Source: Aquilaria yunnanensis
Lineage: Eukaryota; Streptophyta; Magnoliopsida; Malvales; Thymelaeaceae
Assembly (NCBI GenBank): GCA_039654915.1
Contig: CM077600.1
Location: forward strand, 41,462,492-41,526,491
Reading direction: 5' to 3'
DNA length: 64,000 nucleotides
Shown: positions 19,871 to 62,362 of the stretch, one piece after another
Numbering within the stretch: the stretch's first letter is position 1
Layout: each line of letters starts with the position of its first letter
The notes under the pieces: generated by a model
The model's input: the letters and a program-made list of their open reading frames with translations, nothing else
Databases searched by the model: none
Told to the model about the DNA's origin: nothing
Translations under genes and position numbers: made by a program

Positions 19871-20689
19871 AAAATACCAAAAAAGTAACTAAACTTTTGG
19901 CACTAGACAAATTTGGTTACCTATCTTTTAAGTCGTGCCAAATTCATCATTGAAGATAAAATTTTGTGCCAAATCGGGCATCAATGTTTTGAAATGGTAC
20001 TAATAACATGACCAATGTAATTGACAGTGTAAAAGTATCATCAAATGGCAAAATATTCTATGATGATTAGGTAGCAATTAACGGACAATTGTGTGGCAAA
20101 ACGACATGCCAAGTAACCAAAATGACATGAAAATTAAATTGAGACTTTGGATTTTGTTGTAATTGAAGGTTTTAGGAAGAATTGGCATGGGGAATGGACT
20201 CAATTTAATTCGATTGGCTCTAGTGCGATTCAAGTAAAAATTTGGAGGAATTAACCGATGCAATTCGAGGAAGCAACCGGTACAATTTCGAGCAGAGATT
20301 TCAAAGTGGAATCGAAGATGCCGCAATTCCTAGGCATCGTTGGACAATTTTGAGCCGAGATCGAAGAATAGATGACTGAGCAAAGATGTAATGGAGGGAA
20401 ATAAGAGCAGAGATGCAAGGAAGAAGAGATTCTGAGAAGAGACACTTTCTACCACTTCATTCATCGTCATTTCATCCGCAACCCTTGACTTTCTACCTTT
20501 TGCTTTTGACGAGATGAGGAATGCCACCTCAATAGCCCATTCGCCACTCCATTAACACATTATCAAATCTAATCGCAAAATGATGATTTTGGGCCAAACA
20601 TAAAACTTCAATTATGAATTCAGAACCACTTAAAAGATTGGTAACTAAATGTGTCCAGAGCAAAAAATATTATCACTTTTTTTTCATAC
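19871..20689. mobile_element. Non-autonomous Mutator-like element
   Basis: The left end (ACAAATTTGGTTACCTATC, TTTTAAGT, AATTCATCATTGAAG) is matched by the complement of the right end (ACACATTTAGTTACCAATC, TTTTAAGT, AATTCATAATTGAAG). The inverted repeats are about 110 bases. The interior (20090-20540) is less AT-rich and holds only short open frames without family resemblance. I could not find a convincing target duplication. Confidence 0.55.
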
Positions 20690-21043: not shown

Positions 21044-21330
21044 CCTGTTGAAGCACCCAGGCCTTCTACCTCATCTCAAACTCATAAGGTTGACTATGCG
21101 ATTATTTGATGATTTAGAGGAGGTTGAGATCTCTAAACCTTTAACAATGTGTGCATCTTTGTCCTTGAAACTAGCTATTAGGCAAATGAATGACTCAATT
21201 AAGTAAGTGTTGTATACTAAATAGGTTTTTGGCTTTTAAAGGTGATATGGTGTGCGGTGCCTGTGTCAAGCCTAATGACTACACTCAAGTATCCATCTAT
21301 TTAGGTAAGTATAACTCTCACCACTAGGCA
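21044..21330 (+). pseudogene. Partial copy (3' end) of the unidentified palindrome gene
   Basis: This segment is a direct repeat of 22023-22310 at an offset of about 980 bases. It begins with the final coding exon (LLKHPGL, RLFDDLEEVEIS, QMND) and continues through the 3' flank to TTAGGTAAGTATAA. The final part of the frame is lost (the stop comes early after DSIK). It is a truncated third copy lying head to tail with the copy at 21352. Confidence 0.6.
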
Positions 21331-21351
21331 GCCTTACTCCCTAAGCGAAAA

Positions 21352-22194
21352 ATGGCTTCCTCTTCTTCTACTCGATGGTTAAGGGACAAAATGAAAAATT
21401 ATTTGGCTAGTGTGCCTCTACACAGGAAGACCATATCCAGCTTTGCTATGCCCATATTAGTACTATGCTAAATTTTATGCTCAGAGTTGTTGATATATTG
21501 TCTGGTTTAATTTAGTTCCGTTATCTTCATGTAGGAACGAAAAAACACATTTGAATCGTATAATGTGATCGAGAAAAATTTTGTTGGGCATCACAAATTC
21601 TATACACTGACACATAAGTCAGATTATAATCAAGTCTTTCTTGGATGTTTTGGACTTTGACCTAAGGCAGCGCCAAGTTCATAATGAGATTTCCTTATCA
21701 ACTGTAATTGTTCGCTTTGATGATCTGATTGAAATTTACTCTTCAACTAAGAAATTCCAAGATATGGATCCTGACTTAATCCCAACCTTTAGTAAAGAGT
21801 TGGAATCAACCAGAAAACTAATATTAATAAACCTTTGCAAGGGAGGGGATAGGACTCCGCCAGATATTATTCATCTTATCAACTTCCTAAAAGACTATGA
21901 CTCCTTTATGTGAGTTTCTCTAACACCAAAAAAACTGAAATTCTTTTTTCTAAGTTTTGCTGCTTGGTAATACTGTGAACGTGAATTAATGAATTATTAT
22001 TTGACAGGAAATATAGGACTTTTCTGTTGAAGCACCCAGGCCTTCTATCTCCTCTTAAAGTCATAAGGCTAAGTATGCGATTATTTGATGATTTGGAAGA
22101 GGTTGAGATCTCTAAGCTTGGAACAAGGTGTGCTTCTTTGTACTTGAAACCAGCTATCAAGCAAATGAATGACCCGATTAAGTATGCGTTGTAG
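21352..22194 (+). pseudogene. Copy 2 of an unidentified spliced gene (plus-strand arm)
   Basis: I do not recognise the family. The copy opens MASSSSTRWLRDKMKNYLAS, then a probable intron, an exon after TTCATGTAG at about 21537 (NTFESYNVIEKNFVGHH), a long exon to 21909 (DVLDFDLRQRQVHNEI ... KFQDMDPDLIPTFSKELES ... CKGGDRTPP), and a last exon 22018-22194 (KYRTFLLKHPGLLSPLK ... FDDLEEVEISKLGTR) ending in TAG. The 21909/22018 junction is canonical and keeps frame. The link between the first two exons is not clean, so I call it a probable pseudogene or gene fragment. The protein looks soluble with many charged residues and no obvious motif. Confidence 0.45.
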
Positions 22195-23592
22195 GCTAAC
22201 TAGGTTTTTGACTTTTAGAGGTGATATGGGTGTGTGATGCCTATGTCAAGCCTAACAACCACACTTAGATACCCATCTGTTTAGGTAAGTATAACCCTCA
22301 CTCCTAGGCAAACAGTTTTACATAAACATCATAAAACATGTATTATTATAAAGAAGGTTAGCAAAGTAATAAGATTTGATACTTACCTAAACAGATTGTT
22401 GGCATAACACCTTTCCTACAATACAGAAACAAGGCATGAGTAAGAAACATTTAACTACTAAAAATGTAAGTACAAAGCTAAATTTCAAATTATAACTTAC
22501 TTGTATAGTATTCGGCATCTTTATCATGTAGTTCGAACATAAAACTGCAGAAAAATTTATGAAACTTTAAAATTACCAACTGTATAAGTTTCTCCATATT
22601 TACATTCTACTGATGGTCCATAACATTCCCAATGATATCACGAACAAAGATAAGAATTCCTATTATTTTTGTGAACTTGACATATATTTTCTTCTTTTGG
22701 TTGCTTTACCTTTTTGTATAATTAAGAACTCTCTGGGTTCCCTTAATCATCCTAAATCACTCAAGTTGGTTGAATTTGAAGTTAAATTTCTCAGATGGAT
22801 GTACATCTTTTAGAAGATTTTCAATCGCATTGTAAATAACACAACATTTAAAACTAGGATTCGATATCATCAATCCAATTTTTTTCTACCTCCATAGGTA
22901 GAATTAATATGAAATCCTTGTTTCAGACATTGCGCTCGAGTATCTATAATGTGATTGGAAATCATCCAAAAGATGTACATCCACATCCATTTGATATATT
23001 CAACTTCAAATCTAGCCAACTTGAATGGTTTGAGATGGTTAAAGGAGCTCAAGCAGTTCTTAATTATGAAAAGGGGCAAAGCAACTATAAGAAGAAAAGA
23101 TATGTTAAATTCACAAAAGTAATAAAAATTCTTACTTTTTGTTTGGGATATTACTCGACATGTTATGAACCATTCAAAGAATGTAGATGTGAAGAAACTT
23201 GTGCAGCTAATAATTTCAAAGTTTTATAAATTTTTCCACAGTTTCATGTTCAAACTGTATGATAAAGATACTGAATACTATACAAGTAAATTCTAATTTA
23301 AAATTTAGTTTTGTACTTACACTTTTAATAGTTAAATATTTCTCACTTATAACTTACTTTTGTATTGTAGGAAAGGTGTGTTATGACAACAATTTGTTTA
23401 GACAAGTATCAAATCTTATTACTTTACTAACTTTCTTCATAATAATACATACTTTATAATATTTATGTAAAACTGTTTACCCAGTAACAAGGGTTATACT
23501 TACTTAAACAAATGGGTATCTGATTGTGATCGTTATGATTGACATAGGCACCACACACCATATCACCTCTAAAAGCCAAAAACCTAATTAGC

Positions 23593-24426
23593 CTACAACG
23601 CATACTTAATCGAGTCATTCATTTGCCTGATAGTTGATTTTAAGGACAAATAAGCACACCTTGTTCAAAGCTTAGAGATCTCAACCTACTCCAAATTATC
23701 AAATAATCGCATACTTAACCCTATAACTTTAAGATGAGGTAGAAGAGCTGGATGCTTCAACAAAAAAGTCCTATATTTTCTGTCAAATAATAATTCATTA
23801 ATTTACATTCACAGTATCACAAAGTAGCAAAACTTAGAAAGAAGAATTTTTATTTTTTTGGTATTTGAGAAACTCACATAAAAGAGTCATAGTCTTTTAG
23901 GAAACTGATAAGATGAATAACATATGACAGTCCTATCCCCTCCGTTGCAAAGGTTTATTAGTATTAGTTTTCTGGCTGATTCCAACTCTTTACTAAAGGC
24001 TGAGATAAAGTCAAGGTCCATATCTTGGAATTTTTTAGTTAAAGAATAAATTTCAATCAGATCATCAAAGCGAACAATTACAATTGATAAGGAAATCTCA
24101 TTATGAACTTGGTGCTGCCTTAGGTCAAAATCCAAAATATCCAAGAAAGACTTGATTATAATATGACCTGTGTGTTAATGTATAGAATCTGTGATGTCCA
24201 ACAAAATTTTTCTCGATCACATTATACGATTCAAATGTGTTTTTCCATTCCTACAAGAAAACAAAACTAGATTAAACCAATAATATCACAACTCTAAGCA
24301 TAAAATTTAACATAGTACCAAAACGGGCATAACAAAGCTGGATATGGTCTTCCCGTGTGGACGCACACTAGCCAAATAATTTTTCACTTCGTCCCTTGAC
24401 CGTCGAGTGGAAGAAGAGGAAGCCAT
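23593..24426 (-). pseudogene. Copy 3 of the unidentified spliced gene (minus-strand arm)
   Basis: Mirror image of the copy at 21352-22194. It starts MASSSSTRRSRDEVKNYLAS at 24426, has the exon with W-K-NTFESYNVIEKNFVGHH near 24230, then DILDFDLRQHQVHNEISLS near 24140. Compared with copy 2 it lacks 2 bases after GGDRT (about 23925), which shifts the frame and breaks the protein. Its upstream flank (24451-26450) is not duplicated and looks like a leader/promoter region, so this may be the original locus and the plus-strand copies derived from it. That ordering is inference. Confidence 0.45.
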
Positions 24427-24450
24427 TTTTTGCTTAGGGAGTAAGGCTGC

Positions 24451-26504
24451 AAAATACAACTATGTCTTAACATAAGGATTAAATAAAGAAACAATGACTG
24501 CAAAGTGTACAGAAAGGAAAAGTGAACATAATGATGTATGATATACCTAGTTAGCAAAAAATGGATGTCAGAAGCAAATGAAGTAAAAGTATCAACATTA
24601 TAATATCAATACATTATTCGAAGGCTCCTAATGTGACACTGCTCCTACCTAATGTATAATGATGATTGAACAGGGAAATGAATACCACAGCATGTTCAGG
24701 AAGAAGCATACACACACACATATATAGAGAAACAGCCTGAGAGAGCAAAATGGGGAGACGATAATTCTTCTTGAAGGAACAGGATGCTGAAACACAAAGA
24801 CCTTCATAGAATTTCAAACTGGTGTGATAAATGGTGGATAAAATGTAAAAATATGTAATTAGTTATGAGAAGCCATAAAGTTTTGAAAATTGAAACAGAA
24901 CTTCAAAAAATCAGAGATAAACACCAGAAGATATAATTCAAGTGGCAAAGAACAATTTATGAGAAAGGTATATAAGACACGGAAGAGAAATTGGTGCGGG
25001 ACGGTTGTTTGAATACCTGGGAAGATGATCAGCACTCTCTGGTTTAGACTGTAGTAGTGTGTTGCAAGTGTCCTAAAAAGCACCAAGTTACCTGATGCAA
25101 TGCATAAAATAATTGCAAGATTTAACCTATCAAAGTTTTAAAATATATATATATATACCTGCTTGCAACAAACACAACCAGGTTTCCACATGCATCAAAA
25201 CTCACAAAGGATTTGCAATGAATATAACATCAATCCTTACTGAAGGATGAAGAAATCAAAGCAAGCAAATCAAAAGAGACAACAAGCTCCAAACCTTATA
25301 GGGTCCAGAATAAATTTTGAGTTCACGAACACCACAGCAAGATGTGACAGTGCGCTGAAAAGCGACAGTGAGTACGAACGGAACAAAAGCACTAATGATC
25401 TTGTTGGCTACACCGAATGGCTCGTGCTGAACCTCTCACATTCGTCGGACAAGGGGCTTAACGACCTAAACCCAAGAGTCACTGCAACATACATGAAAGA
25501 AAAGCGAAAAAATTATTTGAACGATAACGCAATAGAAGTTCTTATGAAAGAACAAACGGAGCACATAAAATAGAGAAATCCAGTGGTCCCCAAACATGGA
25601 AACAGATAAATATATCGAATCACTTGAGACATGGCACTAGAGTTAACCCAAGCTTGCAACAGAATAAACAATACGTCTTCTCCTTCTTCTTCTTACAATA
25701 AACAAGCAACTGTTGATTAAAGTGAAAAGAAACATAAAACCCAAGTTCCATATCCAAATTAATGAGCAATGATAAAGGATCCATAATTTATCCGACTAAA
25801 TGACCAAACTTCAAATAACGTAAATGTAAGACAGAACCTACTTGTTGGATAGAGAATGATTATAATTAGCTCAAATCAAGAAATAATTATCCACAAAAGC
25901 TGCCCATTATTAGCTGTTCACGCTGCCTCGAAATGGAAGAAGTTTAAAATCATGGAAGGATAGGGTTCAACTTATTTCCCATTTCAAATTTTTTACATGG
26001 AGCAGAAGATTAATTTTGTATCAGAGAGTAGCAAGGCAGCCACAAAACACCAACTTAAGCGAAAACCTTCTTCGCACTGAGTGCAGCAAAATTCATCAAA
26101 TCAATTACAAAAGGGAGATTCTAACCGAGTTGCTATTGATTGCAGAAGCAAAGCGTTATCTGCTTCAGATTCTGACAAATTTGCTGCTTGCTACCCTTGA
26201 TTCGAGAATGACGGAGACGGACAAGCGAGGCGTCCAGTACGGAGGATGAGGAAGTGGCCAACGGCGAGCGCGCACGACGTAATCAGAACCTATCGCGCAT
26301 TTTCGCCGGGGAGTTGTCTGTCTGTGTCGAGGAGTGGACTTGGGGGGAAGGTGGGTGGGCTGTACATATCTCCAGCTTGTGTTCGCATGTAGTTTTAGGA
26401 AAAAAGCGCGGGCTACTGGAAGAAAGCGCGGGCTACTGGGATTTGTGAGAGGGAAAACCACATAAACTTGATCAATGAGAAACTTGGTGGCCAAATTTTA
26501 ATGG
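24451..26504 (-). other. Possible leader/promoter of a minus-strand transcript; no firm gene
   Basis: The stretch lacks clear repeats and is less AT-rich than its surroundings. On the minus strand, 26450 down to about 25800 resembles a plant promoter and 5' leader. A 17-base word, AAAGCGCGGGCTACTGG, is directly repeated at about 26403 and 26424. The open frame at 25247-25573 on the plus strand shows no family resemblance. Confidence 0.3.
25017..25195 (-). other. Two small splice-compatible open exons of unknown identity
   Basis: On the minus strand an ATG at 25195 opens 12 codons (MHVETWLCLLQA) to a GT donor at 25159/25158. After an intron of 67 bases, an acceptor (GCATCAG) leads to 25091-25017 (NLVLFRTLATHYYSLNQRV, then LIIFP) and another CAG|GTATTC donor. 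Frame is kept across the junction. I cannot place the peptide or find the next exon. It could be an untranslated leader with chance coding capacity. Confidence 0.2.
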
Positions 26505-26740
26505 CAGAAATATCATATTTGCCACTACTGCTTTGGATAGGAAATAAATATATCACTATAATTTTTTTTTTTCCTTAATTTTTTACTAATATTTTAAAAT
26601 GAACTGACTGAATATGTCATTACAAGTTAAAAAATAATAGAAAATGATAGAAATAACATATTTTAAAAATTTGAGATTATTATGTATTTTTTTAAAAAAA
26701 TACTAGGACCTTTACGAATTTTTAACTGTTAGAGCAAGGG
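26505..26740. mobile_element. Truncated copy of the 14824-type Mutator-like MITE
   Basis: The run ATATCATATTTGCCACTAC, GCTTTGGATAGG, CACTATAATTTTTTTT, ACTAATATTTTAAAATG and AGGACCTTTACGA follows the left half of the element at 14824-15415 phrase by phrase. The right inverted repeat is absent. Confidence 0.65.
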
Positions 26741-33929: not shown

Positions 33930-34699
33930 CAAACCAGCTTGCACAAAGGTGTTGTGTTGCTTGAAATGCAACTCATAGCTCAGTAAATGACCGTATAGAT
34001 CATTTTATAGACATAAAATCAATCCTAGCCAAAATGGATGTGACCAAAAAATCACATTCCAAGCTAAGACCTGTCAAAAAATACTTGATAATCTCATATT
34101 CGTGAAAGGGTTGGCCAATCACAACCAGAGCATCGGCCAAACCCTTGACATGCATAAAATAGTCAGTAATAGAGAGATCCTTCTTCTAAAATGTTGATAG
34201 TTGTAGATGAATTTGCATTATTCTTATATGAAATTGAGATGAAAAGATCTTTTCAAGGGCTATCCAAACTTCATACGAAGTTGTCATGTTAATAACATGA
34301 GCAAAAATCTCCTCAAAGAGGGATAAAAGTATAGCACTTAAAACCATCTGGTCTTGTTGAAACCATAACTAGTATGCCAGGTTTGGAATTTGATTTGCTT
34401 CAATTGCATTAGGTAAAATATCAGACAATTGTTCATTAGTAATGTCTTGGGAGGACACACAAGGGTGCCGCCAACGTACCTTAGAAGTCTTTGACCCTAA
34501 AGATAGGTAGGAATTAAGCTTTCCACTGCAAGTAGTTGTCTCGAGTAAGACGAATGTTTATAAGGTGGCCTAAGTTTAAGGAAGAGGTTGGTAATAGCGG
34601 AGGTGCAAACAGAGAATGGGGGATGAAAGATGAAGATGTTGTCGAAGAATTGATGGAAGACATGATTGATTTTTTAGGTCAGGATAGGCTCTAATACCA
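33930..34699 (-). pseudogene. Copia retrotransposon gag relic, minus strand
   Basis: A primer-binding site TGGTATTAGAGCC reads on the minus strand at 34699-34687. Lower in coordinate, on the same strand, come gag (UBN2-type) pieces such as WFQQDQMVLSAILLSL, TTSYEVWIALEKIF, and ITDYFMHVKGLADAL with EYEIIKYFLTGL. At least one stop interrupts (after QLSTF). It ends within about 10 bases of the opposite-strand Copia gag at 33919, so the two relics are tail to tail. Confidence 0.65.
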
Positions 34700-34880
34700 T
34701 AAAGAATTTATGTTTTGGCTACACACAATAAACTACTTTTACTCATATATTTTATACATGTTTACATGGGTTGCGAGTAGAAGTACAACTTAAGTACATA
34801 CATAAGAGAACAATAATAAGCAAATAACTTCAAGAGCACTCTATCTATTCAGATAACTTAGAGCTTTATCTTCAATATTC

Positions 34881-36593
34881 TGAAAATGAATAAATTTGTA
34901 ATGGTAGTACAAACAAAAATATTTCTAATTGTATTGAATAATAGTTCATTTGTAGTTGCTTCCTCACTAACTAACTCGAACTACTCTTTATTTATGTGAG
35001 AGGGTGAAAATGGGGTTGAGGACAAATGGCCAGTAAGTGGTGGGTTGTGAAAAAAAAATAATATAAAAAATATATAGAGATCAAGCGAAAGTAATCATTG
35101 TGAAATAATAATATAAACATCACACAGAAAAAATAAAATATTTGAATAGTATGAAAATAATTAATGAAATCACAGTTATGAGAACCGAACGAATAATAAT
35201 TGTAAATAAAAATAATTAACCAAAACAGAGTATTTCAGAGTAGAAAAAATTTAGAGCAAAAGTGGGCAAGGTGACTCGTGTGACTATACTTAAATTGTTG
35301 TAATGCATTTAGAACTGACTAAGAATAACCATTCATTAAGCGCACAACAAGACTAGGACTAAAAATAGTGCACTTTAAAATAGAACAGAACATAATACCT
35401 TATATAGAGGATCCAAAATTACACTTTCCCAGTAGTACGGGTACAAAACCAACACCCACCAAAATAGAGTTAAAACAGAGATTCAAAGTATTACAATTGT
35501 CATAAAATTTCAATGCAAAATATCATAATAAAAAAAATACCTAATCCTAACTTGATTAATCAAACACAATATGTTGCATAAATAAGAAAGAATCTAGAAA
35601 AATAAATAAATAAGTAAATAAATAAAATATTTGGAAAATAATTTTAGAATAAAACATGTATTTGGAAACTCTTATTCTAATTGAAAATAAATTTAATGAA
35701 AATAGTTTTATATCGCAATATTGAAAGATTAATAAATTGGAAAGCTTAACATTTTGAAGAAATAATATACACATAATATCAAAATAATATAAATTTTAGA
35801 AATGGTGGTAGCCACTTACTTTAAAACGTAACTTTCCAACTAATAAAATAATGATTTAGTCACCTAAAATAATTATGCAAAAATTTATATCAAAATATAA
35901 CCAATTTAAGGAATAACACAAAATAACTGTTTGACAATGACCTAAGAACCCACCAGTCACAAAACCAGTGCCAAAAGCCCGAGATACTGATGTTGTTATT
36001 AACCCAAGTGTATGATTTAGCCTTAAGTTTGTAGTAACCGAATTGTAACTTTTAAAATTTTTGAATGTCCATCCACCTGCCCCTAAATCTTAAGGACCTA
36101 CTAGGTAACTCAACCTATTATGCCCAGAAATCTTTCCTTCTTCTGTTCCACTCTCCTGCAACTCACCGAACTCCACCAAAATACCTAGCCAAAAGCTCAC
36201 CAATCTAATCATAAAAAATTAAATATATTCAACCAAATCATTAACCTAAGTCCACTTTCAAGTTCTAAGAATAAACTAGTATATGAATTGAAAAATATTA
36301 ACAATCACTTACTGATGATTCTCCCTTGAAGAAAAACTTCACAAGTGTTTTCCCTTGATCCTCAATTGGCAGTTTCTTCTTCTTCTACTTTTTCAACACA
36401 AGAGAGCAGCTACATGAGAAAGTAAAAGAAATATCCAGAACTATACTTTTCTTATTTCCCTCATTTTTAACAACCCATTCATGTTACTTTCCCCTAATTT
36501 CTTTTACATACTTCTTTTTTTTTTCTTTATTGGGCACTGACAAAAAAACCCAAAATAATAAAAAAAAATCTAAATTAATGTTGGGTAATTGCA
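34881..36593 (-). mobile_element. 3' LTR of the Gypsy element
   Basis: Begins TGAAAATGAATAAATTT and ends at ...GTAATTGCA, directly followed by the pyrimidine tract TCCTCCCCTTAAAA, the polypurine tract of a minus-strand element. The left 1.1 kb matches 41151-42660 with many substitutions, so the LTR pair is old. Confidence 0.65.
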
Positions 36594-36709
36594 TCCTCCC
36601 CTTAAAATAAGTTTCGTTTGTAAAACTTACCTTCATTAGTGAATAAAAATGGATATTTATCACACTTTTTTTTGTGTTCCCATGTAGCTTCTGATGATGA
36701 GTGTTTTTC

Positions 36710-39700
36710 CTAGTGAATCACAAATGGAATAGTGCATCTCCTTAATACTTTCTCATATTGATCAAGAATCCATATTAGTTGCTTTACATACATCAAATTT
36801 GGCTTAATGTCGATAGTTTGATGTTGAACTATGTTATTCAGGTCGTGCACATGCTTATGCAGTATCGATACATGAAACATATTATGTACTCTTAAAAAAG
36901 ATGTTGGTAGATCAACTTTATAATCGACATCCCTAACTTGATTCATAATTTCAAAAGGATTTGCATATGTCAGGCTCAATCTCCCATGCTTCCCAAACCT
37001 CATAGCTCTTTTCATTGGTGATATTTTAATATGAACACTATCTACAAGCTCAAACTTTAACTCATGACTTTTCATTCAGTATAACTCTTTTGCCTACTCC
37101 GTGTAGTGCGTAAATGATCATGAATAATTCAATTTTCTCTACCATCTTTACAATTATATCTCACCTTAATCTTTCAATCATTTATGTCATCCTAACATAT
37201 CAATGACCTGCATCTCTATCCATATAATGCTCATAGGGTGTTATTTTAATGCTAGACTGATAGTCATTATTGTAAGTAAATTCAATAAGTGCTAAATAAT
37301 GATCCCAATTACCCCCAAAATCTAGCACACAGGCTTGGAGTATATCATCAAGAATTTGAATAGTTTTTTCTGATTGCTCATCAATTTAAGGATGATAAGC
37401 AATACCAAAGTAAAGTTGAGTTCCCATGGCCTTCTGCACTTGTCCTTAAAATCTTGCCATCATCTTGAATCTCTATTTAAAACAATAGATAATGGGACAC
37501 CATGTAGTTGGACAATCTCTTTCATATATAGCTTAGCTAATTTCTCTAAACTTGCACATTCTTAAAATGACAAAATGTAAGCCAGTTTAGATAAATGATC
37601 AACAATCATCCATATAGCATTGTTACCTCTATAATCCTTAGAAGTCCTATAGAAAAATTCATAGTAATGTGCCCTCAATTCCATTTAGGAATTAGAAGAG
37701 GCTGTAAAGGTCTTGAAGGCTTTTGATGTTCTGCTTTCACTTGTTCTCAAGTTTGACACTTTGTAACAAATTTAGCAATCTTTTTCTTAAATCCCCACCA
37801 CAAAAAATGCTCATGTAGATCTTTGTATATTTTAGTTATACCAAGATGCACAGCGTAAAGGGTATTATGGGCTTCTTTCATAATTTATTATTCTTTTAAT
37901 GGCTTATCTTTAGGGACACATGCTCGACCACCAAAATTTAGAAAACCATCATCATGGATATAAAATCTTAAATGCTTTCTTTATGAAACTTCTACTTTTA
38001 ACTTGTTAATTTTATCATCTAAACTTTGAGAAATTTTGATTCTTTCAATCAAAGTCAATTGAACCATCAAGTTAGCAAACACATCATCTGTTATAATTTC
38101 CACTTTTAAGTTTCACAGATCATTAAGAATAACTTTTCTGTTAGTAAGAAAAGAAGCTAAAGAGCCATAGGACTTATGACTTAGAGCATCAACAATAATA
38201 CTTGCCTTACCAGCATGATAGTAAGTATTCAAATCATAATCTTTCAGTAACTCTAACCACCTTCGTTGCCTAAGATTCAATTTCTTTTGTGTAAAAATAT
38301 ATTGCAAACCCTTATAATTAGTAAACACCTTACAAGAAACACCACAGAGATAATGTCTCCAAATTTTTAAAGTAGATACAACTATTGCTGATTCCAAGTT
38401 ATGCATAAGGTGATTCTTCTCGTATAGCTTCTGCTGCCTAGAGGCATAAGTAATAACTCTTTCATTCTACATATGTACACATCCCAAACTAATTTGTAAG
38501 GCATCAAAATAATTTTCCAAACCTGTAGTGCCAAATGGGATGGTAAGGACACGTACGAATACTAATATTTGCATTAGCTCTTTGAAGCTTTTCTCACAAT
38601 CCTCATTGCACTTATACTTACATTCTTTTAAACCAATTTGTATAAATGCATAGCCAAGGTAAAAAAGTCCTTTAACAAACTAATGATAGTAACTGGATAA
38701 ATTGAGAAAAACTATGAATTTCAGCAACATTACATGGTTTAGTAGAATTCACCACTGCTTTAACTTTATATGAATCTACTGAAACTTCATCTTTCAAAAT
38801 TATGTGGAAAAAAAAACTTTCCACCTAAAACTCACATTGGTTGAATTTTTCATACAACTGCTTCTCCTTCAGTGTCTGAAAAACAATTCTTAAATGTTCT
38901 TCATTCTACTTCAGGCTCTTAGAATAGACCAAAATATCATCAATAAAAAAAATAACAAATTGGTCTAAGTTAGGCTTAAAAACATGGTTCATATAGTCTA
39001 TAAAAACAACAAATGCATTTGTTAGACCAAATGGCATATCCACAAATTAATAATCATCATACCTAGTCTTAAAAGCAGTCTTAGGTATATTCTTGGCCTT
39101 GATCTTCAATTGGTGATACTCATACCTCAAATCAATTTTAAAAAAACTCATGCATCTTGAAGTTTATCAAAAAAAGCATCTATACGAGATAATGGACATT
39201 TATTCTTAATAGTTATCTTGTTCAACACATGACATGAACACCCCATAATGAAAAATGAAGGCTTATATGCCCTTTGTTAAGCAACTTTTGCAGTTGTACC
39301 TTTAACTCTTTCATCTCTGTCAGGTGTCATTTGGTAAGGAGTTTTAAAGATTGGGGTAGTCATCAACTTAAGATTAATGGAAAATTCAATCTCTTCATCA
39401 ATGGCTAACCCAGGAACTTCCAAAGGAAAGATATTTGGAAACTCCTTGATAATAATAATGTCTCCAGCTTTAATTCTAATTAGCTAACATCTCCAATAAA
39501 AGCTAAATATCTTTAACAACCATTTCTTAACAATCAATATGCATACATAGTAAAGATGACACAAAGGGGGACAGGTTGTCTATTCTTGAAAAATATGATT
39601 TCGGGCTATTAGGAATGCAGAAATACTGCTTTCTTTTTATGGTAGGCAACCAAGCATAATTCATAGATAACCAGTCCATCCCCAAAATCACATCAAAGTC

Positions 39701-40900
39701 AATCATATCGAGCCTAATCAAATTCACGGGCATATCTCTTCCTTCAATTTTCACTACACACCCTTTATTTAACAGAATTAGTAACAACAAGCTTTGCGAA
39801 ATAGGTCTTGATAGATAATTCAAAATTTAATAGCTCAAGTACACAAGACAATCTGGTAGCAAGCTTGGGTGATGTAAACAAATAATTGGCACCAAAATCA
39901 AATAGGCATGAACATAAATAGAACTAATTTTCACTATAACTGAAACAATTACATTACAGTTATCTGCACCATGCTAAGTAAGTGCATAAACTTAGCAACA
40001 AACGTGTGGATTAGCTGCACCTCATTTCTCATCTTACTTCTTTAAAGTAGGTGGATTACCTTTTGCCTGAAAGTTTTAGTAAAGATTTATAATTTGTGGT
40101 TATTTATAATCAGCAATCAAATGGTCTTTCTTGCCACAACAGAAAAAATTGCAAATATTTCAGTGACATTCACCAAAATGGAATTTCCCACAATAATCAC
40201 ACTCTGGAACATCCTAGTGTATAAAAGCTCTATTATGGGTTTGGGTAGAATTTTGTTTCTTTGTTAAATTTCCAAATAGCTTACTTGAAGATCCCTTAGC
40301 CCTATTTTTCCTCTTTAGATCCCTAACAAAAGGGCCTAGCTCCTTTTCCACTATAGTTGTAGTCTCCACTACCTCTTGAAATCCTATGTGGAGCAACCTT
40401 GCTTTGAATGGGCTGTTGAAGTCCTATTTTGAATTTCATTGCCTTTGAACTCTTATGAGCTATCAAGTCTAGAGCATAAGATGAAAAGTCGGTGGACTTT
40501 TTCATATACTCCACTACAGTCATATCTCCCTGTGTCAATTGCATGAACTTTCAAATCTTTTGCATCTTATAGGTTTTAGGGAATAACTTAGCATTGAAGA
40601 TTTGCTTGAATTGTTCTTATGTGAACCCCTCTAAATTCTTAAGCCGTACAATCTACAACCAATCCTCAGCTCAACCCTCTATAACAAAAATTGTAGCACC
40701 AACCTTATGTTGATCATTATACTGAAGAAGATCAAAACATTTTTTCATCTTTGAAAGCCAATGCTTGGCTTCATTTATATTACCTTCACCATTAAATATG
40801 TCAGGTCCTAACCTCAAAAATTCATTGAGGCCTTCTCAACATTCCCACTCTGTACACCAACATTCGGAGGAACACCTATTTGACACCTAATTTGCTGCAT
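36710..40900 (-). pseudogene. Gypsy gag-pol polyprotein, decayed
   Basis: Domains in order on the minus strand: gag near 40900-40210 (MTVVEYMKKSTDFSSYALDL); aspartic protease at 39823-39527 (IDFDVILGMDWLS, with the usual D-x-G signature not clear); reverse transcriptase at about 39080-38920 ([20 protein letters not shown]); RNase H at 38406-38113 (ALKIWRHYL-like TLKIWRHYLCG, NLRQRRWLELLKDYDLN, HAGKASIIVDALSHKS); integrase at about 37900-37600; and integrase C terminus at 37075-36710 (SPMKRAMRFGKHGRLS, LPTSFLRVHNMFHVSIL). Protease-RT-RNaseH-integrase order defines Gypsy (Metaviridae-type plant retrotransposon). Many frameshifts and stops show it is dead. Confidence 0.85.
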
Positions 40901-41386
40901 TCCAATGAAAAATGAGCCTAACGCTCCTATCCTACTTGCTGAGCAATAGGACATCATCATCATTTCCTTGATTTGCATAAGCATGCAAAGTTACACTATT
41001 CCAAATAATTCCAAACTTTGTAAATAATAATCCAAACTTATAAAATTTAACTTCTGACAATAACTATAGACCTTGACATTGAAATATAATTCATAAAATC
41101 TTAGAGTTCTAAAGAACAAAATGAAATTTGAAGATTTTTTTGAACATGAATAAATTTCTAATAGTAGTACTAACAAAAATATTTCTAATAGTCTCAAATC
41201 ACAGCTGGTCTTGTAGTTACTCCCTCGCTAGCTAACTCAAACTACTTGTTATCTATGTAAGGGCTGAAAATGGGGTGAACACGAATGCCTAGAAAGTATA
41301 GGATTGTGTTAACAGAAATACAATATAAAAAACATATAGGGATAAAACAGGAGTAATTCTTATAAAATAATAACATAAACCTCACG

Positions 41387-41388
<2 letters not shown>

Positions 41389-41420
<32 letters not shown>
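41389..41420. repeat. (AT)n microsatellite
   Basis: About 16 AT units inside the Gypsy LTR, absent at the matching place in the other LTR. Confidence 0.95.
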
Positions 41421-41423
<3 letters not shown>

Positions 41424-41903
41424 AAAAATCAGAAAATAATCAATGAAATAACAATTATAAAAACTGAGCAAGTAATATTTGTGAATAGAAGTAATTTAAC
41501 TAGAATAGAGCATTTTAGAGTGAATTAATAGGGCAGAAATTCAAAACAACGTAGGTGGGGTGATCAATATGACTATACTTAAGTCATTGTACGTCCAAAT
41601 TGACTAAGAATCGCCATCGATTGAGCGACTAGAAGAACTAGTAATAAAAACAGTACACTGTGAAATAGAACAGAATAAAATACTCTATGAGAATGGTTCG
41701 AAACTATAATTTTCCAGTAGTACGGGTACAGAACCAACACCCACTAAAACAAAGTTCAGACAGAAATTCAAAGTATTGCAATTGTCATAGATTTTTAGTG
41801 CAAAACATCACAATCAAAATATACATGATCCTAATTAATCAAACACAATATGTTGTGTAAATAAGGTAGACTTCAAATAAATAGATAGATAGGTAAATAA
41901 ATA

Positions 41904-42305
41904 CTCCCTCCGTCCCATTTTAGTTGAAACATTTCTTTGGGCATGGAGATTAAGGTATATGTAATTTGTGTTATTTTTTTCAATTTTACCCATGAAATTA
42001 AAATTAATTTTTTTTAGATTTTGTGTAATGAGAGTTTAAATAATGTTTAAAAAAGAAAAGATTCTGTTTTCAAGTTTTGTGTTGAGAAAGATTGAGTGAA
42101 AATTAAAAAAATATTTTTTATTGGGTTTGTGTAGTGAGAGTTTAAATGAGAATAAGGGAGTAAATTGATTGTTTAAAATTTTCTAAAAGAGAAAATTTTA
42201 AACAATGGAACGGAGGGAGTAATATATACATAATATCAAAAAATAAATACGTTTTTGGGACATCCCAAAAAGAAATACGTTTCAACTAAAATGGGACGGA
42301 GAGAG
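41904..42305. mobile_element. Stowaway (Tc1/mariner) MITE, double right end
   Basis: The left terminus CTCCCTCCGTCCCATTTTAG is flanked by the TA target at 41902-41903. Two right termini match it in inverted form: one ends CGGAGGGAG at 42219 followed by TA, the other ends ACTAAAATGGGACGGAGAG at 42305 followed by TA. The first pair makes a 316-base element; the extra 86 bases carry a second right end joined to an LTR-like phrase (ATATATACATAATATC). This fits a Stowaway inserted into, or recombined with, another copy. The motif is the standard plant Stowaway end. Confidence 0.85.
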
Positions 42306-42693
42306 TAAATATTTAGGAAAATGGAACATGAATATAAAAACTCTTATTCTGATTGAAAATCAATTTAATGGAAAATAGTTTTAAATCACAATATTGAAAG
42401 ATTATTAAGTTGGAAATTTTAACACTTTGAAGAAATAATATATACATAATATCAAAAAATACAAATTTTAGAAATGGCAGTAACCACTTATCTCAAAAAA
42501 TAACTTTCCAACTCCTAAAATGATAATTTAGATGAAATTTAGTCATCTAAAATAATCATGCAAAAGGTTATGTTCAAATACAACTAATTTAAAGAATAAC
42601 TTAAAATAATTGTCCAACAATGACCTAAATGAGCCTTTCGAAAGCCTGAGAACTCACTAATATGAGTGAGAGCTTTTAACCCTAACCCTAAAA

Positions 42694-43368
42694 TAAGGGT
42701 GTAAATGAGCAGAACATTCGGTGAATCGTTCAGTAAAAGTTTGTTTATATTCGTTTATTTAATTAAACGAACGAACTCGAACATATTTTTTTGTTCGATT
42801 AGTTAAATAAACGAACACGAACAAGGTCTCGTTCGTTCATTTACATTCATAAACCATTCGATTATTGTTCGTTTATGTTCATTTATTTATTTGTTCATTT
42901 ATATTGATTTATTTGTTTGTTTATTTATTAGATGTAATTTATTATTATATATGTTTTATAGATAATGTATTTTTATTAGTGTCTACCTACTCCACTCATG
43001 TGATTATACTCCAATCTTTTCCAAATTAATATATTATTTTTGTTTCCCCAAATATAACAATTATTTTCCTCATAACGTGAACCTGCTACAGTATCAAGTT
43101 GAGCCCCATTGCCATAACCCATAATCTCTCTTATCATCGCCTATTGCCTTGTTGGCCATTGTTAGACTCATTCCAATTTAAATTGGTGGTAGTCATTAGG
43201 TTTAATTGTTCGTGCTCGTGTTCATGTTCGTTTATTAATAAATGAACGAAAATGAACAGAGAAGTTGCATATGTTTATTGTTCGCATTTGTGTTCGAGTT
43301 CATTTAAAGTTAAACGAACGAACATGAACATAGCTTATTCGTATTCGTTCGATTCATTTATAACCCTA
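42694..43368. mobile_element. hAT-type MITE with perfect 8-bp target duplication
   Basis: 675 bases flanked by CCCTAAAA at 42686-42693 and 43369-43376. The left end TAAGGGTGTAAATGA and the complement of the right end TAGGGTTATAAATGA form the inverted repeat. The interior is built of CGAACGAAC/GTTCGTTTAT repeats that fold back. There is no transposase. A relative lies at 62991-63483. Confidence 0.85.
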
Positions 43369-46282: not shown

Positions 46283-46627
46283 AGGGCCAATTCGTTTCGT
46301 CTAAAGTCAATTGACTTTTTTTAACTTTTTCATCTTTTTTACGTGAAACCAATTTCATTTGAAAGTTAATGTTATATAGATGCAATAATCAATTTGAAAG
46401 TAAATTTTTAGGATGTTGTTAAATTTTTATGAATTTTTCTTTTTTAAGACTTGAAACTAGAAAAATTCATAAAAAATTAGTAAGATTATAAAAATTATAT
46501 TTTTAATTGATTATTGTAGCTACATAATATTGGCTTTTAATTAAAATTAGTTTCAAGTAAAAAAGATGTAAAAATAAGAAAAAGTCATTTTGTAGTCAAT
46601 TGGCTAAAGTTAAAACGAATTGGCCCT
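46283..46627. mobile_element. Foldback MITE
   Basis: Starts AGGGCCAATTCGTTT and ends with its complement AAACGAATTGGCCCT. The match continues inward (AGTCAATTGACTT against AGTCAATTGGCTAA, then AATCAATTTGAAA) nearly to the centre, where GAAAAATTCATAAAAA pairs with its complement. The whole 345-base unit can fold as a hairpin. Superfamily is not clear as no target duplication is obvious. Confidence 0.75.
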
Positions 46628-52475: not shown

Positions 52476-52843
52476 TGCATTTAACTGTTGTTGAATTTAT
52501 TCAGTTGGGCTTGGAGGATTAAAGAATACTGCTTCAACGATGTCTGAACCCCAGAAGGAATTCTTGGAAATTTAACTGAAACCTGAAAACTACACCATGC
52601 AAACCATTATATGAACAATATACTCGCACGAATGAGGAATTAGAATGCAACTGATTCATCAAACATTTTTGTGTCTACTCAACCTTCAACCTCAACTCGA
52701 CGATCCAAATAACCTTCCACGCAACTGTGGATCATCGAACTGGTGCTGTGGGAATAGGTGGAGAGTTTCAAGCTGGAGTGACTTAAAAACGGGCGAGGGT
52801 GAGGCCATGAGCTAGTGGCAGTTTCTGCACAGGGCCGGCCGCT
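52476..52843 (-). promoter_or_regulatory. 5' leader and promoter region of TAD3
   Basis: A leader precedes the ATG at 52475 on the minus strand; a possible 5'-UTR intron ends near 52580 (TTTTCAG|GTTTCAG). No TATA box is clear, which suits a housekeeping gene. The region abuts the tandem duplication. Confidence 0.35.
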
Positions 52844-53548
52844 GGCAGTCATGCTGGTTGGTTGAACAGAGAAAAGGGGAAGCTAACGGAGACTGATTCA
52901 CTAGGGTTAGAAACAGCGGGTACCTGGTGAGCGTCAATTAACAGCGGTGGCAGATTTGGACGGACTTAATAATAATAATCATAATAATCATAATAACAAT
53001 AATAATGTGTAATTCTATTACTTCTCTATAAGATAAGAATGCTTGGAACCTTAATTGTTGGGTTAGTCTTCTTGTTTTGATCCTTTAAACTCATCCAAGA
53101 GGCCCTAAGAAAATTGCAAATCAATAGTGGCATCAGCACTTACATCACAGAGCTTATGTCGGGAAATGTAAACAATTCAATACTGAATTTCCCCTCCTGG
53201 CGGTCATGCTGGTTGGTTGAACAGAGAAAAGGGGAAGCTAACGGAGACCAATTCACTAGGGTTAGAAACAGCGGGTACCTGGTGAGCGTCAATTAACAGC
53301 GGTGGCAGATTTGGACGGACTTAATAATAATAATAATAATAATAATAACAATAATAATGTGTAATTCTATTACTTCTCTATAAGATAAGAATGTTTGGAA
53401 CCTTAATTGTTGAGTTAGTCTTCTTGTTTTGATCCTTTAAACTCATCCATGAGGCCCTAAGAAAATTGCAAATCAATAGTGGCATCAGCACTCACATCAC
53501 AGAGCTTATGTCAGGAAATGTAAACAATTCAATACTCAATTTCATCTC
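52844..53548. repeat. Direct tandem duplication, unit about 352-355 bases
   Basis: Unit 1 (52844-53198) and unit 2 (53199-53548) are nearly identical, for example CTGGTTGGTTGAACAGAGAA, CACTAGGGTTAGAAACAGCG, ACCTGGTGAGCGTCAATTAA and GTGGCATCAGCAC in both. Differences are few single bases and a changed TAA microsatellite (52967-53006 against 53322-53358). The high identity indicates a recent event. It lies just upstream of TAD3 and copies probable promoter-distal DNA. Confidence 0.92.
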
Positions 53549-54610
53549 CTTCATGAGATTTTTCCTTTTTTTTTTCACTTTTCTCTTTCACGTGACTTTT
53601 GTTGTCAATGTTATTATTAAGCCTAAACTAAAAAAGAACAAAAAAAGTCAATGACCCAAACTTAACTGTACCCAACCCGACCTGAACCTGAATCCAATTG
53701 AAGCGAGACCTAAACCTGAATGACCCAAATCCAAATTGAATTGAACCAAAATTAGACTAAACCTGAAATGACCCGATGATTAGCCCTGGCAAGACCTGAT
53801 TTTAGCCCAAATCAACATAAATATATGATCGACAAAGATGTAAAAACTTGAGTTTGTTTATATATTGTTTATTTATCTAAATTACACACAATTATGACCA
53901 TACCATTTTAGAAACTTTAAAATGCTATGAAAGTAGTATTTTTTATATAGGGATCTTTAAAGAATAAATTAACAAAAATAATATGCTTTACGTAAGAGTC
54001 TTATAAATCAATGAATACAAATGCTATGTTAAGCATTTCTAAATGCAAATGCTATAGATGCATGAATCCTAACAATACTCAAAAATTCTAAATGAATACA
54101 AATGCAAATGTCATTACACTTCACAATTTAACATTAACAATGGTAAAGTTGCAAACATTTTGTTAAGCATTTCTACTAAGTCACAAATCAATTACTAATA
54201 TTTTTCAATATCACTGTATCAGCAATTATTTTTATGTAAACAATAAGTTCTCAATTCTCAAATCTTAATAACCTTTTTTTATTAAAGAGAACAAGTTTAA
54301 CTACTTAAAAATAATTCCATATATCAAACAAATGTCTTTTACTCCTGCTCATTCTGCCAAAGCTACTTGCATAAGTACATCTCGCGTATTAACCACAAGG
54401 AATGAAGTAGGATGCCCAATTTTCAAAATAGCTCCTCTTAACGTGAGAAAAATAAATTGTCAAAGATAGTAGGTATCTTAAAGCAGATTCAAGCAGAGAA
54501 GAAGATGATGGAATGAAAGGAGTTTCGACCTGGAATCGTGGCTACCGAGTGCTGATTGACTGAAGAAACAAAAATGGTGGCCTATGACGGTGGGAAGGGG
54601 TAAGGCTGGT
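53549..54610. other. AT-rich intergenic DNA with hAT-like debris
   Basis: 53650-53830 has GACCCGA/CCTGAACCTGAA phrases of the kind seen inside small plant hAT elements. No gene recognised. 54490-54600 may belong to the flank split by the next insertion. Confidence 0.4.
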
Positions 54611-56114: not shown

Positions 56115-56560
56115 AGGTAAATCCTAAACTATAAACCTTAAACCCTAAATTATAAACATTAAACTCCCAATTCTAAATCATAAATCCTAAACTATAAAAT
56201 CTAAACCCTTAACTATAAACTCCAAACCCTTAACTCTACCCTAAACCTAAACTCAAAACCCTAAACATTTACCCTAATATAAACTATAAGCCCTTAATCC
56301 TAACTGTAAACCATATACTTAATCCTAAACTCTAAATCTTAAATCCAAAACTCTAACCCTAATTGAAACCTTGACCTTTAACATAAACCTAAACTGTAAA
56401 TTTAACCATAAATCCTCAATCTTAACCTAAACTCCTAAACCTTAACACTTAATCTTATGCTTATCCCCTACCCATAAACCTTAACACTTAATCTTATTTA
56501 TAACTCTTATCTAAACGTTAACGGCTTAATCCTAACTTTTACCATAAACCTTAAGTTTCC
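56115..56560. repeat. Degenerate telomere-like tract
   Basis: About 450 bases in which CCCTAAA, CCTAAAC, ACCCTTAA and TCCTAAACTATAAA phrases recur irregularly on the plus strand. The perfect heptamer CCCTAAA occurs only a few times, so this is either a decayed interstitial telomeric repeat or a sequence that drifted into similarity. Confidence 0.6.
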
Positions 56561-61833: not shown

Positions 61834-62362
61834 GGAGTAAATAGCAATAATGGTCCCAAAACCTTTAATTCTCGTTAAATCGGTCCCTAATCTTTATTTC
61901 GGTACAAATAGGTCTGAAATATTTTATAATTCATTATATATTGGTCTCTGATTATAGGCAGACACAGAAACTCAATTTATAGAGAAGAAAAACTAATAGA
62001 TCAAAATTATTTATTAATTATAATAAAATTATAACATAATTTGAATTTCTTAGAAAATAACTATTAAACAGTTTGAGTTTGTTAACTCTCACGAATTATT
62101 TAATATTAACTTTTAAAATTTTAATTTAAACTATCCAATAACTATTTTTCCAATAAATTCAAATTGTATCATAGTTTTTTAACAGTTAATGGATAATTTA
62201 AACTACTACTTTTTCTTCTCTATAAATCCAATTTCTGTCTCTGCCTAAGACTAGGGAGCAATATGCAAGTAATTATAAAGATTTGAGATCATTGCAAAGA
62301 AATGAAGTTTGATGATCAATTTGTAATGAAATTAAGGGTTTGGGACCAATGCTTTTGTCCTC
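61834..62362. mobile_element. Foldback MITE upstream of WHY2
   Basis: The left end (AAATAGCAATAATGGTCCC, TAGGCAGACACAGAAA, TTTATAGAGAAGAAAAA) is matched by the complement of the right end (AAAAGCATTGGTCCC, TAGGCAGAGACAGAAA, TTTATAGAGAAGAAAAA), and the match continues to an AT-rich centre near 62090. It has no coding. It inserted about 180 bases upstream of the WHY2 start codon. Confidence 0.65.

What the first reader, a model, noticed from the sequence alone, without database searches (positions are those of the whole stretch)
21328..24450. Gene-sized palindrome that could form a long hairpin RNA
Two arms of about 1.5 kb, 57 bases apart, carry inverted copies of the same spliced, unidentified gene, and a third partial copy lies in direct orientation beside it (21044-21330). 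Such inverted gene duplications are known in plants to yield double-stranded RNA and small RNAs that silence related genes in trans. The arms are diverged enough that processing could be miRNA-like. The encoded protein family is not one I recognise.
Basis: partly seen in the sequence, partly recalled or inferred. Interest (0 to 1): 0.75.

Follow-up and report, generated by a model that had tools for sequence, protein, structure and literature searches.

The report
Old inverted duplicate of plant pseudogene
A probably dead plant gene was long ago copied into a mirror-image pair; if RNA is made across it, it would fold into a very long hairpin that could give gene-silencing small RNAs, but whether that RNA exists is not known.

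Summary
The palindrome is real: 21328-22867 pairs with 24450-22907 at 86.6-86.9% identity. With gaps the arms run to the centre, about 4 nt apart, not 57. A third partial copy lies at 21045-21330. A fold-back assembly error is very unlikely: the arms differ at 205 aligned sites, 4:1 transitions. The gene is probably a pseudogene broken before inversion: both arms share one frame break, the right arm has two more stops and a 2-nt gap, and arm differences look neutral (22 of 62 synonymous, 31% expected). Its family is unidentified. Either strand's RNA folds arm to arm (-1909, -2035 kcal/mol), with uninterrupted runs, G.U counted, up to 60 or 78 bp, so siRNA-like dicing is likelier than miRNA-like. 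One hint of use: transitions preferentially keep G.U pairing in minus-strand RNA (102:62, P=0.002), but nine control pairs do not differ significantly from it (P=0.07). No RNA data were available, and the own-genome search did not complete. Verdict: a genuine, probably relic, hairpin-capable locus of a known kind.

The parts
21045..21330 (+). Third, partial copy (T): last exon and 3' part of gene-A-like pseudogene, direct orientation, 979-980 nt before its match in the left arm
   Evidence: 85% identical to 22024-22310
21328..22890 (+). Left arm of palindrome (gene A sense on +)
22884..22899 (.). Centre: 6-bp inverted repeat CTACCT/AGGTAG with 4-nt spacer; possible fold-back point
   Evidence: sequence, gapped alignment; 74 of 1599 40-nt stretches of the window hold such a repeat (6 bp, loop 3-6) anyway
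22893..24450 (-). Right arm of palindrome (gene A sense on -)
21352..21459 (+). Inferred exon 1 of pseudogene A, left arm (ATG...); right-arm match 24426-24319
   Evidence: inference from open frame and splice-like borders
21535..21911 (+). Inferred exon 2, left arm; frame break shared with right arm near 21634
22009..22194 (+). Inferred exon 3, left arm
23593..23778 (-). Exon 3 counterpart in right arm, with two in-frame stops not in the left arm
   Evidence: coordinates read from the alignment
22311..22883 (-). Inner part of left arm: second gene-like stretch (B) on the opposite strand, more diverged (inferred)
22900..23477 (+). Inner part of right arm: B-like stretch (inferred)
24451..26300 (-). 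Right flank, not duplicated. On the minus strand a splice-acceptor-like TTGTATTTTGCAG straddles the border (its last four letters are inside the right arm). CpG o/e 0.68 against 0.41-0.44 in the arms. Candidate source of minus-strand transcription (inferred)

Best explanation
A plant gene-like segment (pseudogene A plus a stretch B on the opposite strand), probably already frame-broken, was duplicated as a near-spacerless inverted pair by a fold-back or template-switch event, possibly primed at a 6-bp inverted repeat; a tandem event left a third partial copy. Since then (K2P 0.15) the arms have drifted without protein constraint. The locus is now a relic that would form a 1.5-kb imperfect hairpin if transcribed. 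The likeliest transcript is minus-strand, entering from the right flank through the right arm; it would be diced into siRNAs acting mainly in cis (methylation of the locus) and possibly on relatives elsewhere. Shown: duplication, divergence pattern, coding decay, computed folding. Inferred: prior pseudogenisation, origin mechanism. Not shown: any transcript, siRNA or target.
For: Arms and third copy. Shared frame break and arm-specific lesions. Neutral differences: 22 of 62 synonymous, expected about 0.307, P=0.41. MFE -1909 (+) and -2035 (-) against -788, -806 and -603 for three other 3123-nt stretches; 1361 arm-to-arm pairs on +. 102 of 164 transitions keep pairing in minus RNA, P=0.0022; bootstrap 95% 0.54-0.70, composition-free 2x2 P=0.0028; T-polarised 20:6, P=0.009 (counts, test). 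ts:tv 163:37 against 133:59 in the gypsy LTR pairs, P=0.007. Splice-acceptor-like site at the right-arm border on the minus strand.
Against: No transcript or small-RNA data. Nine other inverted pairs of the window show no strand bias (108:98), but the palindrome does not differ significantly from them (P=0.07); those pairs may have diverged elsewhere. The inner part of the arm alone is not significant (49:36, P=0.19), and one 250-nt bin (22578 on) runs the other way, 17:25. The third copy against either arm has an ordinary ts:tv (30:12 and 31:14), so the raised ratio is not seen throughout the locus. CpG depletion of the arms is ordinary here (36 of 80 windows at or below 0.43). No homologue supports the exon inference.
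Confidence: 0.62

Rival explanations
1. Inert relic (a sub-case of the origin given above): the inverted duplication is not transcribed across its centre and makes no small RNA; the strand bias is chance or replication-strand mutation asymmetry.
For: Neutral decay; ordinary CpG depletion; strand bias not distinct from controls (P=0.07); transposon relics in the same window.
Against: 102:62 strand bias and raised ts:tv relative to LTR pairs.
Confidence: 0.45
2. Active hairpin-RNA locus that silences intact relatives in trans, as in soybean GmIRCHS; pairing in minus RNA is kept by selection.
For: Stable hairpin with long uninterrupted runs; pairing-keeping transitions in excess.
Against: Inner arm at 18% divergence; no target known; pair-breaking A.C changes are not rarer relative to transversions (62:41) than half the transitions are in the LTR pairs (66.5:59).
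Confidence: 0.15
3. Transposable element with captured gene fragments (Pack-MULE or foldback element).
For: Gene-like pieces in inverted arms; inverted or dispersed repeats nearby at 19879-20682 and 26505-26722.
Against: No target-site duplication seen by eye at 21044/24451 or 21328/24451.
Confidence: 0.12
4. Assembly artefact (fold-back read or collapsed haplotypes).
For: Short spacer, as in fold-back artefacts.
Against: 13% divergence, 4:1 transitions, arm-specific stops and gaps, third copy at similar distance.
Confidence: 0.03

Closest known systems
Soybean GmIRCHS / I locus (inverted repeats of a pseudoCHS gene; 27-kb CHS1-3-4 inverted repeat cluster)
   Same: Inverted repeat of a pseudogene that can give dsRNA (abstracts and section lists of PMC13051633 and PMC3804491 seen)
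   Different: There RNA silencing, siRNAs and targets are reported; here none is known, the arms are 13% diverged, and the family is unidentified
Arabidopsis Ws PAI1-PAI4 inverted repeat
   Same: Two gene copies as an inverted repeat; a minority of RNA from one copy reads through the centre into the other and gives fold-back dsRNA (passages of PMC3203196). [quoted passage not shown]
   Different: PAI1-PAI4 is tail to tail and transcribed; here inner B stretches meet at the centre and transcription is not shown
Rice inverted pseudogene pairs with small RNAs
   Same: Adjacent inverted paralogous pseudogenes predicted to form hairpins (12 passages of PMC2708354)
   Different: The rice example is a 185-nt duplex with a 1,283-nt loop; here the stem is about 1.5 kb with almost no loop
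Teosinte Tpd1 hairpin
   Same: Long non-coding hairpin RNA locus (abstract and passages of PMC11390486)
   Different: There 22-nt siRNAs, Dcl2 dependence and a target are reported
Inverted-duplication model of MIRNA origin
   Same: Inverted duplication of a gene or pseudogene (abstract of PMC3237417)
   Different: No short, precisely processed foldback is shown here

Membership tests
Plant hairpin-RNA (hpRNA/hp-siRNA) locus | Near-complete inverted repeat able to form a long duplex | tested here: met
Plant hairpin-RNA (hpRNA/hp-siRNA) locus | Transcript crossing the centre | not testable with these tools
   No RNA data; only an indirect strand bias
Plant hairpin-RNA (hpRNA/hp-siRNA) locus | Strand-biased 21-24 nt small RNAs | not testable with these tools
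   No small-RNA data
Plant hairpin-RNA (hpRNA/hp-siRNA) locus | Targets or relatives in trans | not tested
   Own-genome search did not complete (14 tries)
Known MIRNA families (Rfam) | Score above the family's gathering threshold | tested here: not met
   Best MIR7533, 47.2 bits against 230; the match rests on pairing, with little sequence identity
TIR transposon / Pack-MULE | Target-site duplication at outer borders | tested here: inconclusive
   None seen, by eye only; old duplications can decay
Functional protein-coding duplicate pair | Intact frames under purifying selection | tested here: not met

The most novel reading that the evidence does not exclude
The arms have diverged under a minus-strand RNA regime: transcription through both arms, with transitions that keep G.U pairing favoured by mutation or selection. 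The old pseudogene palindrome would then be a long-lived hairpin-RNA locus whose substitution pattern records its transcribed strand, a signature that could be used to find active hpRNA loci from sequence alone.
Probability: 0.2. Interest if true: 0.6.

Novelty: new member of a known kind. Interest (0 to 1): 0.38.

Why it matters
Inverted pseudogene duplications are a known source of plant siRNAs and are thought to seed new MIRNA genes. This one is long, near spacerless and diverged, so it could show how long hairpin capacity survives neutral decay. If the strand bias holds in other loci, arm-to-arm G.U asymmetry would be a simple sequence-only test for the transcribed strand of hairpin loci. 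As it stands it is one more locus of a known kind.

Tried and rejected
Gene identity: Pfam scans of exon pieces, composites and stretch B gave only matches below the curated cut-offs. PDB sequence searches gave nothing credible (best E 0.45, amyloid precursor, chance level; 0 at E<=0.1). Protein collection: none of 109 candidates at E<=0.001 and none of 954 at E<=10; these look only at proteins of 0.55-1.75 times the query length, so a long parent protein would be missed. Viral contigs: 9 pattern matches, no relative. Genome contigs: 97 pattern matches, no relative. AlphaFold of part of exon 2 (two sequences in the alignment): all-helical, pLDDT 68; Foldseek PDB 41 matches at E<=10, 0 at E<=0.001 (several weak clamp-loader hits, E>=3.3), not taken as identification.

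MIR7533/MIR1435 rejected as matches that rest on pairing; for miR7533 only a listing of 4 papers was seen. CpG depletion as a mark of methylation of the palindrome rejected: ordinary for the window. C-to-T differences are commoner in CG (15 of 65) and CHG (31 of 113) than CHH (118 of 808) sites, but LTR and MITE pairs show the same order or a similar one, so this says nothing special. Outer-inner divergence (10.6% against 18.3%, P=3e-5) is real but unexplained (gene conversion of the outer part, or different mutation). Exon against intron divergence in A: 9.3% against 13.9%, P=0.085, not significant.

Dropped rows: the script stopped at the seventh of 13 comparisons; six were printed and used. 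The inverted pairs were run, but three direct pairs (14826/26505, tandem 52842, 18221/19226) were never computed. Of the inverted pairs listed outside the locus, the small self-palindrome at 42741-42824 was left out of the controls, and the arm limits of 46283 and 61851 were set by me. The strand-bias test was made after the two strands' fold energies were seen; it is two-sided.

Full report
What is there. The window is plant DNA by its contents: a copia gag, Ty3/gypsy pieces and a Whirly-domain exon were found by Pfam. At 21328-24450 lies a palindrome. The repeat finder splits it into colinear inverted pairs. A gapped local alignment joins 21328-22867 to 24450-22907 with 1329 identities in 1529 ungapped columns. 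MAFFT gives 1325 of 1530, K2P 0.15. With gaps allowed the arms continue to CTACCT-CCAT-AGGTAG at 22884-22899, so about 4 nt separate them at the very centre. A direct partial copy at 21045-21330 is 85% identical to 22024-22310; BLAST at E<=0.01 found no further copy in the window. At a neutral rate of about 7e-9 per site and year (recalled, species unknown) K2P 0.15 would be roughly 11 million years.

Not an artefact, most likely. The arms differ by 164 transitions and 41 transversions. The right arm has two stops and a 2-nt gap that the left arm lacks. The third copy is at a similar distance from both. A fold-back read error would give near-identical arms.

What the arms encode. Each arm holds a gene-like stretch A, with three open pieces bordered by splice-like signals, and further in a stretch B on the opposite strand (inferred from open frames). 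In A both arms change frame at the same place within exon 2; the simplest reading, without a homologue to prove it, is that the sequence was a pseudogene before it was inverted. Differences between the arms in these pieces are 22 synonymous and 40 nonsynonymous, as expected without constraint (about 31% synonymous expected, P=0.41). The longest open run in 21528-21912, 100 codons, is longer than Markov shuffles give (P=0.006), so a coding origin is likely. No relative was found in Pfam, the PDB or the protein collection. As a control, a gypsy piece of the same window found 3271 proteins, of which 120 were listed; several of the named ones are from plants such as Tanacetum, Ananas and Camellia. 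So plants are held, but a parent protein longer than about 620 residues would have been missed.

How it arose. The 6-bp inverted repeat at the centre fits a fold-back or template-switch origin like that proposed for human inverted duplications (abstract of PMC3907307). 74 of 1599 40-nt stretches of the window hold such a repeat anyway, so this is only suggestive. The third copy joins the left arm at ...CTAGGCA/GCC..., consistent with a GCA microhomology (read). On the minus strand a splice-acceptor-like TTGTATTTTGCAG straddles the right arm's outer border, its last four letters lying inside the arm. So the right arm may be the original place, with 5' sequence in 24451-26300 (inference).

RNA. 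Folded alone, the plus strand gives -1909 kcal/mol with 1361 arm-to-arm pairs, the minus strand -2035; three other stretches of the same length give -788, -806 and -603. Uninterrupted runs, G.U counted, reach 60 bp (plus) and 78 bp (minus); 18 and 19 runs are at least 21 bp. 76 of 1543 21-mers and 25 of 1534 30-mers of the left arm are identical in the right. This favours siRNA-type dicing over a miRNA-like one.

Strand bias. A transition in one arm leaves a G.U pair in the RNA of one strand and an A.C mismatch in the other. 102 of 164 transitions keep the pair in minus RNA, 62 in plus RNA (P=0.0022); gene A part 53:26 (P=0.003), inner part 49:36 (P=0.19). A 2x2 table that cancels base composition gives P=0.0028. 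Where the third copy polarises the change, 20 of 26 transitions favour the minus strand (P=0.009; counts, test). Transitions are also commoner than in the gypsy LTR pairs (163:37 against 133:59, P=0.007) and in nine other inverted pairs (206:128, P=1e-6). Against it: those nine pairs give 108:98, from which the palindrome's strand bias does not differ significantly (P=0.07); one bin of the arm runs the other way, 17:25; and the third copy against either arm has an ordinary ratio (30:12, 31:14). Transcription-linked mutation, replication-strand mutation and selection for pairing all predict this bias; it does not prove a transcript.

Comparison. The layout works like PAI1-PAI4 (passages), GmIRCHS and the soybean I locus (abstracts) and the rice inverted pseudogene pairs (passages). 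Membership among hairpin-RNA loci is met for structure only; transcript, small RNAs and targets are untested. Known MIRNA families are not met. The own-genome search, which could show a parent gene, never answered (14 tries).

Verdict. A real inverted duplication of a probable pseudogene with strong hairpin capacity; a new member of a known kind, most interesting for the strand-biased divergence, which needs RNA data. The confidences overlap: the inert relic and the active trans-silencing locus are sub-cases of the same origin, so they do not add to one.

Noticed in passing
34878-42628: Old Ty3/gypsy element on the minus strand: LTR-like direct repeats 34878-35945 / 41138-42628 (79-85% identical) and SH3_Tf2-1, RNase H and protease pieces on separate open frames.
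   Followed up: partly
52842-53550: Tandem duplication of a 352-nt unit, 95% alike, less diverged than the palindrome arms.
   Followed up: no
56118-56446: Degenerate repeats of CTAAACT-like units, reminiscent of plant telomere repeats (motif recalled), in several arrays.
   Followed up: no
33971-34110: snoZ247 C/D snoRNA match just at the gathering threshold, minus strand (38.1 against 38 bits).
   Followed up: no
46283-46627 and 61851-62348: Two further palindrome-like repeats with arms 76% and 71% identical, perhaps MITEs.
   Followed up: partly
21328-22867: Arm divergence is 10.6% in the outer gene-A part and 18.3% in the inner part (P=3e-5); unexplained.
   Followed up: partly
22275-22396: Within the left arm, the end of A and a piece of B form a small imperfect palindrome of their own (71%, 126 columns) around a TTTAG/GTAAGTAT-like motif (read).
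   Followed up: no
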